Positions 8,241 through 57,820 of a stretch of DNA of 64,000 nt are shown here, one piece after another; the first letter of the stretch is position 1, and each line of letters starts with the position of its first letter. Position numbers and translations under genes: made by a program. Source of the stretch: Nocardia xishanensis NBRC 101358 (GTDB lineage Bacteria > Actinomycetota > Actinomycetes > Mycobacteriales > Mycobacteriaceae); assembly GCF_001613365.1 (NCBI RefSeq), contig NZ_BDCF01000042.1:1-64000 (forward strand), given 5' to 3'. The notes under the pieces were generated by a model. It did not search any database. It was not told where the DNA came from and worked only from the letters and a program-made list of their open reading frames with translations.

Positions 8241-9314
8241 TCAGAGATCGAGGACGAGGTCGTCCCCGAGCGCGCGCGACACGCAAGTGAGCATGGCGGA
8301 ATCCCGCTCGGATTCCGGCAGCGACCGGTCGCGGTGGTCGATCTCGCCTGCGAAGACCCGCGTCTTGCAGGTGCCGCAGAAGCCCTGCCTGCACGAGAAC
8401 GGGGTGCCGGGCCGCACGCGCAGAATGGCGGCCAGCGCGGACTCGTCGCCGCCGACGTCGACCGTCTTTCCGCTGCGCAGCAACGTGATACGGAACGGCG
8501 CGCCGTCCTGGACGGGAAGCGGCGAGAAGCGCTCGGTGTGCACCGAGGCGGTCGGGTCGGTGGTGGAGAGCACGCGGCGCGCTGACTCCATCAGCGGCGG
8601 CGGACCGCAGACGTATACCGCGGCGCCGCGCGGCGCCTCTGCCATGAGGGCATCGAGATCGGGTACGCCGTACTCGTCGTCCGGCCGCACCTCGAGGCGG
8701 CCGCCGCGACAGCGCTCGAGCCGTGGCAGGAACGGCATGCTCGCCCGCGATCGCCCGAGGTAGATCAACCGCCACGGCGCGCCGCGGCGCGCGCACTCGG
8801 TCACCATCGGCAGGATCGGCGTGATGCCGATGCCGCCCGCGACGAACAGGTACTCCGGCGCGTCGACGAAGGTGAAGGCGTTGCGCGGCCCCCTGATTCG
8901 CAACAGGTCGCCCTCGCGCAGCTCGTCGTGCATCTCACGGGAACCGCCGTCGCCGTCGGCGAGATAGCGCACCGCGATTCGGTACGTCTTGCGGTCGAAA
9001 GGATCGCCGGTGAGCGAATACTGCCGCTGGCGGCCGGACGGCAGGAACACGTCGACGTGCGCTCCGGGAATCCAGGACGGCAGATCAGCGCCGCCGGGCG
9101 ACCGCAGCGTCAGGCTGATCACGTCCTCGGCCTCGACGACGCGCGCGTCGATCCGCAGCTGTAACTCGAAACCAGTGCGGCGCACGGGATTCGGACGCGA
9201 CAGCAGCCCGGCAGTTGCCTCGGAGGCGAAAGCGCGCTTGTAGGCGCCGAGCAGGCCCGCCACCGCGCGCGCCGGGAGCGGCGGACGATAGCTCCCGGTC
9301 ACGATGGCGTTCAC
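8241..9314 (-). CDS. PDR-type ferredoxin reductase (flavin, NAD(P)H, 2Fe-2S)
   Basis: Electron-transfer protein of 357 residues with three domains in order: flavin domain with RQYSLTGD (the RxYS motif), NAD(P)H domain with GGIGITPI and CGPPPLM, and a C-terminal plant-type 2Fe-2S domain with CRQGFCGTC and a fourth Cys about 28 residues later (LTCVSR). It passes electrons from NAD(P)H to a partner oxygenase or membrane-bound desaturase/hydroxylase. The GTG start at 9314 overlaps the stop of the PF10118 gene (GTGA), giving tight coupling. The partner is not obvious: the adjacent FMO normally takes NADPH directly, so the PF10118 di-metal protein is the more likely acceptor. Confidence 0.85.
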   Translation of the reverse strand: MNAIVTGSYRPPLPARAVAGLLGAYKRAFASEATAGLLSRPNPVRRTGFELQLRIDARVVEAEDVISLTLRSPGGADLPSWIPGAHVDVFLPSGRQRQYSLTGDPFDRKTYRIAVRYLADGDGGSREMHDELREGDLLRIRGPRNAFTFVDAPEYLFVAGGIGITPILPMVTECARRGAPWRLIYLGRSRASMPFLPRLERCRGGRLEVRPDDEYGVPDLDALMAEAPRGAAVYVCGPPPLMESARRVLSTTDPTASVHTERFSPLPVQDGAPFRITLLRSGKTVDVGGDESALAAILRVRPGTPFSCRQGFCGTCKTRVFAGEIDHRDRSLPESERDSAMLTCVSRALGDDLVLDL

Positions 9315-10186
9315 GCCTCACCCGCGCGGGCCGCGGGCGACTGCGCGAGGTAGCGAATCGCGTTGTCCATGGGGCCGAGCTGGGACGGATGGAAACCCGG
9401 CCGCAGATAGCGTGGGATCTCGGTGACGAAGGTGGTGAACTGCGGAATCACACCGCGGGCCGAGGCGCTCAGCATCTGGAGCGGCCAGTGCCGTCCCTTG
9501 TCCGGCTCTGGATCCTTGTGGAACAGGTAGCCGCCGGAGATCACGAACAGCGCGAGCAGGCCGAAGCTCGCCAGCAGGCTGGTCCGCGCCTTGCGGAAGT
9601 ACCCGCCGTCGACGTGCATGTAGGCGTCGTAGACCACGCTGCGGTGCTCCACTTCCTCCGCGCCGTGCCAGCGGATCAGATCCAGCATCGCCGGATGCAT
9701 GTTCTTGGCCTCGAGCTGGTCGTTCGTCAGCAGCCACTCGCCGATGACCGCCGTGTAGTGCTCCATCCCGGCGAACAGGGCGAGCCGCTCGCAGAGCCAC
9801 TCGCGCTTGGCGCGCCCGCTCAGGCCGTGATCGCCGAGCACCCGGTCGACCAGCCAAGACACGGTGTCCACCATCGGGCCGACGTCCAGCCCGATCGACT
9901 CGAGATGCTTGCGCGCCTTCTCGTGCGAGCTGGCGTGCATGTTCTCCTGGCCGATGAATCCCTGGACTTCCTCGCGCAGCCGTTCGTCGTCGATGAGCGG
10001 CAGCGCTTCGGCCAGCGCCTGCGCCATGGCCCGCTCGCCTTCCGGCAGCACCAGGTGCATGACGTTGATGATGTGGGTCGCCATCACCTCGCCGGGGATG
10101 TAGTGCATGGGCACCGAATCGAAATCGAACCGCACGTCGCGCGCGTGTATCGCGTGCGCCTGGTCGTCGTACGTGGTTGTGCTCAT
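9311..10186 (-). CDS. PF10118 metal-dependent hydrolase-like protein
   Basis: Protein of 291 residues of the family named metal-dependent hydrolase (PF10118). It shows ferritin-like helical character with repeated Glu/His pairs: GQENMHASSHEKA, FAGMEHYTAVIGEW and HGAEEVEHRSV. These could bind two metal ions, as in di-iron oxygenases. A hydrophobic segment SLLASFGLLALFVISGG (about 209-225) suggests membrane contact. It is the first gene of the operon with the reductase, monooxygenase and SDR. The ATG at 10186 forms an ATGA overlap with an upstream 26-codon ORF. Role inferred only: an oxygenase or hydrolase acting on a lipid-like compound. Confidence 0.7.
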   Translation of the reverse strand: MSTTTYDDQAHAIHARDVRFDFDSVPMHYIPGEVMATHIINVMHLVLPEGERAMAQALAEALPLIDDERLREEVQGFIGQENMHASSHEKARKHLESIGLDVGPMVDTVSWLVDRVLGDHGLSGRAKREWLCERLALFAGMEHYTAVIGEWLLTNDQLEAKNMHPAMLDLIRWHGAEEVEHRSVVYDAYMHVDGGYFRKARTSLLASFGLLALFVISGGYLFHKDPEPDKGRHWPLQMLSASARGVIPQFTTFVTEIPRYLRPGFHPSQLGPMDNAIRYLAQSPAARAGEA

Positions 10187-10263
10187 GCCTGCGCCTCGCT
10201 GTCGCTCGGCTTCGGCATGCGCAAGGCGCGCTGGCACATGATTCGCTCACTTCGTTCGCTCAT
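10183..10263 (-). CDS. Upstream ORF copy 1 (26 aa), ATGA-coupled to the PF10118 gene
   Basis: ATG at 10263 opens a 26-codon frame that begins MSERSERIMCQRALRMP and ends SDSEAQA. Its TGA overlaps the ATG of the downstream gene by the sequence ATGA (10186-10183). The second tandem copy is identical, and a diverged copy with the same length and the same overlap precedes the DUF4254 gene at 31962. The preserved reading frame and stop/start overlap suggest a translated leader peptide or a coupling device. No function is known to me. Confidence 0.5.
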   Translation of the reverse strand: MSERSERIMCQRALRMPKPSDSEAQA

Positions 10264-10340
10264 GCCTGCGCCTCGCTGTCGCTCGGCTTCGGCATGCGCA
10301 AGGCGCGCTGGCACATGATTCGCTCACTTCGTTCGCTCAT
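10260..10340 (-). CDS. Upstream ORF copy 2 (26 aa)
   Basis: Identical in sequence to copy 1, exactly 77 bp further upstream. Its stop TGA overlaps the ATG of copy 1 (ATGA at 10263-10260). Together with copies 1 and 3 it forms a chain of stop/start overlaps leading into the PF10118 gene. Confidence 0.45.
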   Translation of the reverse strand: MSERSERIMCQRALRMPKPSDSEAQA

Positions 10341-10381
10341 GTCTCCGCCTCGCTGTCGCTCGGCCGACTTCGTTCGCTCAT
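10337..10381 (-). CDS. Upstream ORF copy 3, shortened to 14 aa
   Basis: Short version of the element, MSERSRPSDSEAET. Compared with copies 1 and 2 it lacks 36 bp (12 codons) in the middle, which keeps the frame and again ends in a TGA overlapping the next ATG (10340-10337). Loss of exactly 12 codons without loss of the overlap supports a role for translation of the element. Confidence 0.4.
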   Translation of the reverse strand: MSERSRPSDSEAET

Positions 10382-10430
10382 ACCGCCGTCCTCGCCTCTC
10401 ATCGTTGAAACAGGCTCCTCTGACGGTATT

Positions 10431-10454
10431 TGTTGACATCACGTGATGTCAACA
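10431..10454. promoter_or_regulatory. Perfect 24-bp palindrome, probable operator/promoter
   Basis: Each half is 12 nt: TGTTGACATCAC followed by its exact complement, ending at 10454. The palindrome carries a TTGACA on both strands. On the minus strand TTGACA is followed after 18 nt by TACCGT, a plausible -35/-10 pair for the oxidation operon that begins at 10186. A dimeric repressor of the TetR or GntR kind could bind here. No regulator gene faces this site directly; the TetR gene at 11354 is a candidate by proximity only. Confidence 0.65.
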
Positions 10455-10655
10455 GTGTGCTGCCATAGAAAACTCGATGTCTCACATCTCGATTCCTATT
10501 GGCGATGCCCGGCGAATCGCGCCTACCGTCGTCGATGTCGCCACTGACGGATCGGACGCGGAACGTCAGTCCGTGGACATGGCGACCTGATCCGGACCAG
10601 ACGACGTGCACCGATGACCGAACCCGTCGCGGGTTCCGAACGAGGGAGACGAGAA

Positions 10656-31884: not shown

Positions 31885-31965
31885 ATGAGCGAACGCAGTG
31901 GGCGAATCATGTGCCAGCGCGCATCGCGCGAGCCGGAGCCGAGCGTCAGAGAGGTGAAGGCATGA
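31885..31965 (+). CDS. Upstream ORF (26 aa), ATGA-coupled to the DUF4254 gene
   Basis: ATG 31885 opens a 26-codon frame beginning MSERSGRIMCQRASREP and ending SVREVKA. The TGA overlaps the ATG of the DUF4254 gene (31962-31965). It is the diverged sister of the leader ORFs at 10183-10340: same length, the same start MSERSxRIMCQRA, the same overlap. The DNA differs at about 11 of 77 positions and gives about nine amino-acid changes but no stop or frameshift. Confidence 0.5.
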   Translation: MSERSGRIMCQRASREPEPSVREVKA

Positions 31966-39428: not shown

Positions 39429-40196
39429 ATGGAAGCAACGGAGGTGACGCGCGGCCGACGCGGCGAGACGTCCGGCGGGAGCGCCGAATTGGCCCTGCCG
39501 GAGCGCTTGCCGAAGTCGTATCGGGTGCGCACCGAGCTGGAGGGGATGATCGGCGAGCTGGACGAGGGCGATCCGGTGCCTTCGGAGCGCGAACTCGCGC
39601 TGCGATTCGAGGTCGCCCGCGAGACCGTCCGGCAGGCATTGCGAGATCTGTTGGTGGAGGGACGTATTCGGCGGCAGGGCCGGGGGACGGTGGTCTCGCG
39701 TCCGAAGATGGTGCAACCGCTGTCGCTGCGCTCCTACACCGAGGGGGCGCTGAGCCTGGGCCGGGTGCCCGGCCGCATCCTGGTCGCCTGGGAGGATGTC
39801 CCCGCCGACGCGGACACCGCCCGCGATCTCGGGCTGACCGCGGGCACGCCCGTCATGCACCTGGAGCGGGTGCTGCTCGCCGACGGCGAGCGGATCGGAC
39901 TGGAGAGCACCTTCCTGCCGCTGGCGCGCTTCGCCGGACTGCGCGACGACTACGACCCGACGACCTCGCTCTACGCCGCGGTGCGCGCCTCGGGCGTGGA
40001 ATTCGGCGCCGCCACCGAACGCATCGAGACGGTGCTGGCCTCTCCGCGCGAGGCCGCGCTGCTCGAATGCACGACGGCGCTGCCGCTGCTGTTGCTGCAT
40101 CGGCGCAGCATCGACGACGACGGGCAGCCGATCGAACGGGTGCGCGCCCTGTATCGCGGCGACCGGATCGCGTTCGAGGCCCGGCTGTCGAAGTAG
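39429..40196 (+). CDS. GntR/HutC family regulator, PhnF-like
   Basis: Repressor of 255 residues. The winged helix-turn-helix is DPVPSERELALRFEVARETV followed by RQALRDLLVEGRIRRQGRGT, and the C-terminal half is a UTRA ligand domain (MHLERVLLADGERIGLESTF, HRRSIDDDGQPIERVRALYR). Such HutC-type members bind small acids or phosphonate-related ligands. It is divergent from the phosphonate cluster with two matching operator boxes, so it is almost certainly its regulator. It ends 1 nt before the convergent LLM gene. Confidence 0.88.
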   Translation: MEATEVTRGRRGETSGGSAELALPERLPKSYRVRTELEGMIGELDEGDPVPSERELALRFEVARETVRQALRDLLVEGRIRRQGRGTVVSRPKMVQPLSLRSYTEGALSLGRVPGRILVAWEDVPADADTARDLGLTAGTPVMHLERVLLADGERIGLESTFLPLARFAGLRDDYDPTTSLYAAVRASGVEFGAATERIETVLASPREAALLECTTALPLLLLHRRSIDDDGQPIERVRALYRGDRIAFEARLSK

Positions 40197-57329: not shown

Positions 57330-57820
57330 CGTCGTCCTCCTGTAGTCGGGCGGCGGGCCGCCCACCACCCGGTAATTCCTCCCGGGATACGCGACTGTAA
57401 CGCGTTCTAATTCGGTGTCGCCGGGAATCGTCGGGAATAGTTCGCTGATCGAACTCCGGGGTTGACAAGGGTCTTCGTCATCCTTCTGGAGTATCGCGGC
57501 TACCCCGCGGGACGGAGCCGGAAATCGGGATGCCGCCGGAAGCGCCGGGGCCGCCCGCGCGGCTACGTTCGCTCACGGAAAGGCGTCCAGGGCAGTGAGG
57601 AGAGATCCGTGCGGAAGCGCGACAGGCGAACCAGGCGCAGCGTCTCCGAGTGTCGGCGGGGTGCCGCCGTGCGGAAGCGCCGCGAGGCGGCCATCGGCAC
57701 AGTGCCGGGGCACGGCGGTGCCGAGTATCGGCGTGGGGCGGCTCTCCGGGTGCACGACGAGCGAACCGTGAACTCGGCGTCCGCGGGCACGGCGGTGCCG
57801 AGGGTCGGCGAGGTATCGCT
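57330..57820. other. Gene-free divergent region with degenerate repeats
   Basis: Between the phosphotransferase and DoxX genes. Repeated pieces: GTGCGGAAGCGC at 57610 and 57670, and GGCACGGCGGTGCCGAG near 57714 and 57786. A 120-codon Arg-rich plus-strand frame covers the repeats and ends in a TGA overlapping the ATG of the DoxX gene (57821-57824). I doubt that it is a real protein, but the overlap is noted. Confidence 0.45.

What the first reader, a model, noticed from the sequence alone, without database searches (positions are those of the whole stretch)
10183..10381. Chain of ATGA-coupled upstream ORFs made by a tandem repeat before an oxidation operon
Two identical 77-bp units and one unit lacking 36 bp lie between the promoter palindrome and the start of the PF10118 gene. 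Each unit encodes a tiny ORF (26, 26 and 14 codons, beginning MSERS) whose TGA overlaps the next ATG, so a ribosome could walk through three leader peptides into the main gene. The 36-bp loss is exactly 12 codons and keeps the stop/start overlap. I know of no described system of this kind, although similar peptides may be annotated as junk ORFs in Nocardia.
Basis: seen in the sequence. Interest (0 to 1): 0.85.

Follow-up and report, generated by a model that had tools for sequence, protein, structure and literature searches.

The report
Mobile repeat inserted at start codons
The repeat is three tandem copies of a dispersed, apparently mobile DNA element that inserts exactly at gene start codons and carries its own small reading frame, so the gene behind it can probably still be translated; it works like the MIRU repeats known from mycobacteria.

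Summary
In detail: a 41-bp and two identical 77-bp units (10187-10381, minus strand) encode 14-, 26- and 26-codon frames chained by ATGA overlaps into the PF10118 gene. It is not a private leader of this operon. The unit is dispersed: 93 matches in this genome (lower bound) and a match in 137 of 148 genomes of the genus. The 29 orthologous loci read from other genomes lack it at this place; the three closest show a clean empty site (promoter palindrome 73 instead of 268 bp upstream; 195 = 77+77+41). At ten further junctions 23 of 28 orthologous rows lack it; all 26 element-free starts read DTGA. New, as far as nine searches of an open-access library show: this family, relatives in three other genera, and three coding-strand hairpins supported by covariation (one around the SD and next start codon) while the peptide changes. 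Insertion probably also rewrites the target start to ATGAGY (small sample). Plain sequence shows no homology to MIRU; a structure model does pick out MIRU arrays, weakly. Translation and mobility are inferred, not shown.

The parts
10431..10454 (.). Promoter-side perfect palindrome TGTTGACATCAC/GTGATGTCAACA, probable operator of the operon; not part of the element
   Evidence: 12+12 bp, no spacer. In the three closest relatives it begins 73 bp before the gene start instead of 268.
10390..10393 (-). Native SD-like GAGG of the PF10118 gene, 8 nt before the ATG; should now drive the first leader frame
   Evidence: Sequence; a near-identical gcgaggacggcg context precedes the gene start in the empty sites L210-L212.
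10341..10381 (-). Shortened element unit, 41 bp; frame MSERSRPSDSEAET* (10337-10381)
   Evidence: its junction sequence was found at no other place in the loci of this genus held.
10264..10340 (-). Element unit, 77 bp; frame MSERSERIMCQRALRMPKPSDSEAQA* (10260-10340)
10187..10263 (-). Element unit, 77 bp, identical; same frame (10183-10263), TGA overlaps the ATG of the PF10118 gene
10245..10259 (-). Hairpin 1 of the last unit (columns 5-19): GC-[GA]-AC-(GAA)-GT-[GA]-GC
   Evidence: Columns 9-15 are the top covarying pair; helix counts.
10220..10230 (-). Hairpin 2 (columns 34-44)
   Evidence: 3 of 4 pairs have changes on both sides.
10185..10218 (-). Hairpin 3 (columns 46-79), holding the element's SD-like GAGG (10194-10197) and the first two bases of the downstream ATG
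   Evidence: compensatory changes at columns 47-78 and 49-76.
9311..10186 (-). Target gene, PF10118 metal-dependent hydrolase (291 aa); its start now reads ATGAGC
   Evidence: PF10118, E 1.3e-73; matches at E<=1e-60 in 145 of 150 genomes, own included.
8241..9314 (-). Next gene, Fer2/FAD oxidoreductase; its mechanical GTG start overlaps the stop of the PF10118 gene by 4 bases
31885..31965 (+). Second copy of the element in the window (single unit, MSERSGRIMCQRASREPEPSVREVKA*), ending on the ATG of a 147-codon frame
57758..57818 (+). Weak, degenerate copy just upstream of a 451-codon frame starting ATGAGT
   Evidence: 23 bits, E 6.9e-4.

Best explanation
It is a MIRU-like dispersed, apparently mobile element that inserted at the ATGA start of the PF10118 gene and is now a tandem array of three units. 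Each unit starts and ends with ATGA and holds one open frame, so the gene's own ribosome-binding site now starts the first leader. Each leader's TGA overlaps the next ATG, and the last hands ribosomes to the gene, so expression survives the insertion. The unit also carries an SD-like GAGG and the next ATG inside a conserved hairpin, which the leader ribosome should melt. Tandem copies arise by duplication; in-frame losses are tolerated. Shown: dispersal, placement at DTGA starts, element-free sites in relatives, frame retention, conserved structure. Inferred: direction of change (insertion rather than loss), translation, coupling, melting of the hairpin, the mobilising machinery.
For: Dispersal. 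Placement: 35 of 48 high-scoring arrays end on the start of a strong frame against 22 of 74 control ATGAGY sites; 19 of 48 begin on the stop of an upstream frame against 17 of 461 control ATGA sites. Empty sites: window locus clean in the 3 closest relatives, no element upstream of the gene in 29 of 29 loci read; ten more junctions, 23 of 28 orthologous rows element-free, 11 of them with flanks abutting exactly; all 26 element-free starts read ATGA or GTGA. Copy number varies: at the clpP-like junction two relatives have 0 units, one has 1, this genome 2. Frame: 44 of 49 distinct own units intact against a simulated mean of 22.5 (0 of 2000 simulations reach it); stops alone 41 of 43 against 33.2 (1 of 2000). 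Structure: covariation 0.202 against 0.127+-0.005 shuffled, 0 of 500; G-U cells outnumber A-C cells 102 to 21. Other genera: 27 of the 29 g13, g16 and g29 copies read close the frame although their peptides differ.
Against: No ribosome profiling, proteomics or reporter data. Copies are related, so counts are not independent, and the frame set left out low-scoring and partial units. In 13 of 48 high-scoring arrays the downstream frame failed my thresholds. Five of 49 distinct units have broken frames or starts (L009, L018, L024, L039, L161); a frameshifted first unit sits in the clpP-like junction, where coupling through it should fail. Of the 23 element-free rows, 10 differ from exact abutment by 1-9 bases and two by 50, and at one junction (L014) the only relative found carries a unit. 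The fold of least energy for one unit is not the covarying one, and its energy is only weakly better than shuffles (z -1.8 for the window unit). No transposase is known; Y1_Tnp is absent.
Confidence: 0.84

Rival explanations
1. A regulatory leader evolved for this operon: three leader peptides sense a state (attenuation-like) and tune the hydrolase and reductase genes.
For: It lies between the operator-like palindrome and the gene, with an intact coupled chain.
Against: Absent upstream of the gene in all 29 orthologous loci read from other genomes; the same unit stands before other genes; related elements encode other peptides, and third codon positions vary only slightly more than first and second (0.145 against 0.107 and 0.110).
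Confidence: 0.05
2. A mobile element whose frame is incidental: selection is on a nucleic-acid hairpin needed for mobility, and the ATGA ends are only a target-site preference.
For: Strong covariation with a strand bias; structure is kept while the peptide changes.
Against: Frames are kept far more often than simulated, and in three other genera 27 of the 29 copies read close exactly on the last DTGA although frame closure is not part of the search model.
Confidence: 0.2
3. A REP/RAYT-type element mobilised by a Y1 transposase.
For: Short, GC-rich, hairpin-forming and dispersed.
Against: PF01797 has no match in this genome, while 5 of 14 control genomes ring; the element has an ORF and start-codon placement.
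Confidence: 0.03
4. Chance ORFs in GC-rich repeats generated by local slippage, with no mobility.
For: Tandem arrays exist (21 of 67 arrays have more than one hit) and GC-rich DNA has many open frames (control 22 of 74).
Against: Dispersal, exact empty sites at DTGA and cross-genus structural relatives.
Confidence: 0.01

Closest known systems
MIRU, mycobacterial interspersed repetitive units
   Same: Short dispersed units in tandem arrays, placement at DTGA start codons, one small frame with ATGA overlaps (-4 spacing), frequent placement in operon junctions or 5' UTRs. The senX3-regX3 array of 77+77+53 bp in strain CDC1551 is a close parallel (passage of PMC4213456). Checked on the loci: 76 of 122 arrays have DTGA on both sides; of the 76, 42 have a frame running exactly onto the last DTGA, 62 a downstream frame of at least 100 codons and 34 an upstream frame ending on the first DTGA. 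The hairpin core GAGCGNAGCGA is shared.
   Different: No sequence homology by profile search in either direction (best E 0.82) or by consensus alignment. The unit has two GA-type hairpins about 50 nt apart where MIRU has one core per about 53 nt. MIRU copies repeat the target's own bases after DTGA (63 of 76 match at the next base, shuffled mean 33); this element does not beyond chance (38 of 43, shuffled mean 35.5; two bases 22 of 43 against 20.9).
Translationally coupled upstream ORFs (uORFs) in bacteria
   Same: The short frame's main effect may be delivery of a ribosome to the next gene (passages of PMC12548453).
   Different: Here the uORF is carried by a dispersed repeat.
REP/BIME elements with RAYT transposases
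   Same: Short, dispersed, hairpin-forming.
   Different: No Y1_Tnp in this genome; that REPs carry no coupling frame is recalled.
Leader-peptide attenuators
   Same: Small ORFs between a promoter and an operon.
   Different: Not found with the operon in the 29 other loci read, and the peptide is not conserved among related elements.

Membership tests
MIRU | Dispersed units of about 40-100 bp at many chromosomal places | tested here: met
   77-bp unit, 93 matches in this genome. The 40-100 bp and 41-site description is from passages of PMC2734929.
MIRU | Insertion at start codons so that an internal ORF is coupled at -4 nt | tested here: met
   Position and frame met; coupling itself not testable here. 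Definition from a passage of PMC12548453.
MIRU | Tandem copy number varies between strains (VNTR) | tested here: inconclusive
   Varies between genomes of different species at the clpP-like junction (0, 0, 1, 2 units); strains of one species were not compared.
MIRU | Sequence homology to the MIRU consensus | tested here: not met
   no profile cross-hit, consensus alignment 29 against a shuffled mean of 30.5. R1 found no genus but its own among 301 genomes of the family (only 15 candidates scored per genome).
MIRU | Shared structure (not a published criterion; my own test) | tested here: inconclusive
   Model R2 on 16 of the Mycobacterium loci: nothing significant, best E 0.15. Model R3 on 55 of the 116 loci: 27 of 27 matches at E<=1 lie on MIRU arrays, same strand, which cover 1.1% of the strands, but the best E is 6.5e-4 and the next 0.025; the 23 matches at E 1-10 were not sorted. 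Shared ancestry and convergence both remain possible.
REP/RAYT | Y1 tyrosine transposase in the genome | tested here: not met
   PF01797: 0 matches in this genome, 5 of 14 control genomes ring.
MITE of a DNA transposon | Terminal inverted repeats | tested here: inconclusive
   No inverted repeat of 12 nt or more at the unit ends; the ends are direct ATGA(GC) repeats. Shorter inverted repeats were not tested.
Operon-specific leader peptide | Conserved upstream of orthologous operons | tested here: not met
   0 of 29 orthologous loci from other genomes carry it there.
Known structured RNA | Match to an Rfam family | tested here: not met
   Window 10100-10500, no match at E<=1.

The most novel reading that the evidence does not exclude
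There is a superfamily of structured start-codon elements in this actinobacterial family (here in four genera, with MIRU as a further branch). A hairpin with tandem G-A steps and a tiny loop is the heritable and perhaps mobilising core, while the peptide is free to change. Each copy is a portable translation-start cassette: it takes over the target's ribosome-binding site for its leader, hides its own SD and the next ATG in a hairpin that only the leader ribosome opens, and usually rewrites the target's start to ATGAGY. Insertions therefore re-tune rather than kill genes.
Probability: 0.35. Interest if true: 0.8.

Novelty: new variant of a known kind. Interest (0 to 1): 0.62.

Why it matters
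MIRU copy number is widely used to type tuberculosis strains, yet how MIRUs move and what they do to the genes behind them is open. This family supplies element-free sites at ten genes, an independent lineage with many copies, a structure supported by covariation, and a separation between what is conserved (frame, ATGA ends, hairpins) and what is not (peptide). That makes two questions testable in harmless laboratory actinobacteria: does the leader enforce translation of the gene behind it, and is a hairpin the substrate of mobility? It also warns annotators that MSERSER-type small ORFs here are repeat frames, and that insertion may change a gene's start codon.

Tried and rejected
Sequence homology to MIRU: rejected. 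The fold of least energy for one unit: no covariation. Y1 transposase: absent. Element on plasmids or phages: no blastn match at E<=1e-3 in 72,556 plasmid and 50,697 phage records. Rfam: none. MIRU-like duplication of target bases after DTGA in this family: tested, not beyond chance. Strict rewriting of the target start to ATGAGY: not strict; 38 of 48 high-scoring arrays end in ATGAGY, four in ATGACC, one in ATGAAC, three in GTGA, two have no DTGA. Peptide selection: third codon positions only slightly more variable. Matches of the structure model in genera g4 and g9: the four read have no DTGA ends and no closing frame, so I do not count those genera. GAGCGNAGCGA is not enriched in the window: one match, at 39723, 0.57 expected.

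Rows dropped: one search gave 63 matches at E<=1; one search kept 58 after the E limit of 1e-3 and removal of duplicates; A1 took 35 of these (duplicates, partial and indel copies and a few tandem partners left out); A2 took 69 distinct full copies of 81 bp. Two of 67 arrays at contig edges were left out. In one search two of 30 rows (L275, L276), judged paralogues, were left out. Of 27 matches, 20 had loci and were read. In the start-codon control one of eight genes was not queried (doubtful start), one had no match, and one gave only paralogue-like rows (4), leaving 13 rows.

Papers: nine searches showed no listed paper on such an element in Nocardia; only the listed rows were seen (for example 12 of 1,974 and 20 of 53), so this is a weak statement about one open-access library. 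One listed Nocardia genome paper, PMC13186243, was looked at by passages only and does not describe it there. PMC12548453, PMC4213456, PMC2734929, PMC4128351 and PMC11133741 were seen as passages (the first also as abstract). Supply et al. 1997, the founding MIRU paper, is not held and was seen only in reference lists; its DTGA wording is recalled.

Full report
1. What is there. On the minus strand, between the palindrome at 10431-10454 and the PF10118 gene (start 10186), lie 195 bp made of a 41-bp unit and two identical 77-bp units. The frames are 14, 26 and 26 codons, each TGA overlapping the next ATG. The net loss in the short unit is 36 bp, though its joint is not a single clean deletion.

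2. It is a dispersed element. A plain search gave 54 matches in this genome; a sequence model from 35 copies gave 93 at E<=0.01 (150 of 14,432 candidates scored, so a lower bound). In the genus 137 of 148 genomes, own included, match at E<=1e-4 (only 31 candidates scored per genome, so copy numbers there are capped). Consensus: ATGAGCGAACGnAGTGAGCGAATCATGTGCCAGCGCGCCTCGCGCATGCCGGAGCCGAGCGCCAGCGAGGCGCAGGCATGA.

3. Where copies sit. Of 67 arrays (94 hits) 65 are testable and 48 of these score at least 45 bits. Of the 48, 35 end exactly on the start of a frame of at least 100 codons with GC3>=0.8 (control ATGAGY sites 22 of 74, Fisher p 3e-6), and 19 begin on the stop of such an upstream frame (control ATGA sites 17 of 461, p 2e-12). 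For the 17 weaker arrays the numbers are 11 and 4. The downstream criterion is loose in GC-rich DNA, as the control shows; the upstream one is sharper. These are frames, not annotated genes.

4. Empty sites. The protein finds relatives at E<=1e-60 in 145 of 150 genomes, own included; the 29 best loci from other genomes were read. None has the element upstream of the gene; L235 has one behind its gene, and L224 a chance-level match (E 0.94) far upstream on the other strand. In the closest three (93-96% identical protein) the palindrome begins 73 bp from the start rather than 268, a difference of 195. At ten other junctions in the same three genomes 28 orthologous rows were found: 23 without an element, five with units. 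In 11 of the 23 the flanks abut with no base gained or lost; in 10 they differ by 1-9 bases and in two by 50. The clpP-like junction (named by eye) shows 0, 0, 1 and 2 units. At one junction (L014) only a filled relative was found. All 26 element-free starts (three at the window) read ATGA or GTGA. That the element-free state is the older one is the simplest reading, not proven.

5. Start rewriting. At all 11 loci this genome reads ATGAGY at the gene; the element-free orthologues do so in 11 of 26 rows (others ATGACC, GTGAAC, GTGAGC and so on). Genes of this genome that start ATGAGY without an element keep it in 11 of 13 rows (Fisher p 0.017). Genome-wide 38 of 48 high-scoring arrays end in ATGAGY, so insertion probably brings its own ATGAG(C/T), but not strictly: four end in ATGACC, one in ATGAAC, three in GTGA and two without DTGA. 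The sample of empty sites is small and its rows are related.

6. What is conserved. (a) Frame: 44 of 49 distinct own units intact against a simulated mean of 22.5; stop-free only, 41 of 43 against 33.2. Of 64 full-span units, 17 differ in length, 13 of them by multiples of three, but ten of these 13 share +3 and may be few events. (b) Structure: in 89 distinct copies columns 9 and 15 are the strongest covarying pair of all (0.741, next 0.281), AT in 48 and GC in 32. A three-hairpin model gives 95.1% paired cells against 91.2 shuffled, 11 of 18 pairs with double changes against 4.3, covariation 0.202 against 0.127+-0.005, 0 of 500 shuffles (69 copies). The single-sequence best fold gives nothing. 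G-U cells exceed A-C cells 102 to 21, in 15 against 9 of 18 pairs; barring a mutational bias this points to the coding strand (mRNA, or same-sense single-stranded DNA). Two hairpins hold G-A/A-G steps present in 85-89 of 89 copies; that tandem G-A pairs and GNA loops are unusually stable is recalled, not from a call. (c) Not the peptide: third codon positions vary little more than others, and related elements encode other peptides (next paragraph). Copies are related by descent, so shuffles overstate certainty.

7. Relatives. A sequence-only search of 301 family genomes finds only this genus (22 genomes, 1 of 31 genera). The structured model R2 finds two more genera (14 of 201 genomes). R3, built with those copies, matches 57 of 401 genomes in 6 genera. 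I read 13 copies from g13 and g16 and 16 from g29: 27 of the 29 close their frame on the final DTGA, with peptides such as MSERQRANHSTQRACASCAHGAKRVRA and MSDACERIIGYTCGSRACEATA. The model favours ATGA ends, but frame closure is not part of it. The four matches read in g4 and g9 lack DTGA ends and are set aside, so three further genera are accepted. On the structural alignment across genera covariation is 0.337 against 0.152 shuffled, though that alignment was fitted to the structure.

8. Relation to MIRU. In 122 arrays, 76 have DTGA on both sides; of these 42 have a frame running exactly onto the last DTGA and 62 a downstream frame; bases after the first DTGA repeat those after the last (63 of 76 at one base, shuffled mean 33), which looks like duplication of the target. 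The present element shows no such repeat beyond chance (38 of 43, shuffled mean 35.5). Profiles of the two families do not find each other. R2 found nothing significant in 16 Mycobacterium loci (best E 0.15). R3 on 55 of the loci gives 27 matches at E<=1, all 27 on MIRU arrays on the same strand, which make up 1.1% of the sequence; 23 of them span two GAGCGNAGCGA cores. The best E is 6.5e-4, the next 0.025. Among 28 distinct MIRU matches that depart from the exact pattern, one carries the same paired change (GAACG.AGTGA) as this family and one an unpaired change there. Kinship is therefore suggested, not shown. It works like a MIRU; I do not file it as a MIRU.

9. Mechanism. The native GAGG should now start the first leader; each full unit supplies GAGG seven bases before the next ATG, inside hairpin 3 (sequence). 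Leader translation should open it and the -4 overlap should pass ribosomes on. Both models, RNA unfolding and reinitiation, are reviewed in PMC12548453 (abstract and passages). A parallel in print: in M. bovis a gene has a 77-nt 5' UTR made wholly of a MIRU where M. marinum is leaderless (passage of PMC4128351). Longer repeat arrays before an M. tuberculosis gene in general went with higher mRNA (passages of PMC2734929). Nothing here shows translation. How the element moves is unknown.

10. Verdict.

Noticed in passing
L018 (G000:C24:72465-72623) and relatives L248, L251, L260: A two-unit array sits at the start of a clpP-like gene (named by eye from the translation); its first unit has a +1 frameshift, one relative has a single unit and two are empty. 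A good natural copy-number series.
   Followed up: partly
L235, 2357-2439: In one relative (G120) an element lies just behind the PF10118 orthologue instead of in front of it.
   Followed up: no
L045-L160 (MIRU loci): MIRU copies repeat up to a few bases of the target gene's start after both DTGA ends, like a target duplication (63 of 76 match at one base, 20 of 76 at three; shuffled means 33 and 3).
   Followed up: partly
L346, L352 (genus g9) and L345 (g4): Other repeats with GAGCGNAGCG-type hairpins (in g9 ACCGAGCGNAGCGAGG) but without DTGA ends or a coupling frame; possibly a different use of a similar hairpin.
   Followed up: no
L011, L024 (own genome): L011: an array's last unit matches only its first 34 columns and then runs into other sequence. 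L024: an array lies at a contig end, suggesting that repeats break the assembly.
   Followed up: no
L041 (G000:C38:11920-12190): An array of three full units and one partial unit whose middle hairpin is changed from CGCG/CGCG to CCCC/GGGG, a compensatory swap.
   Followed up: yes
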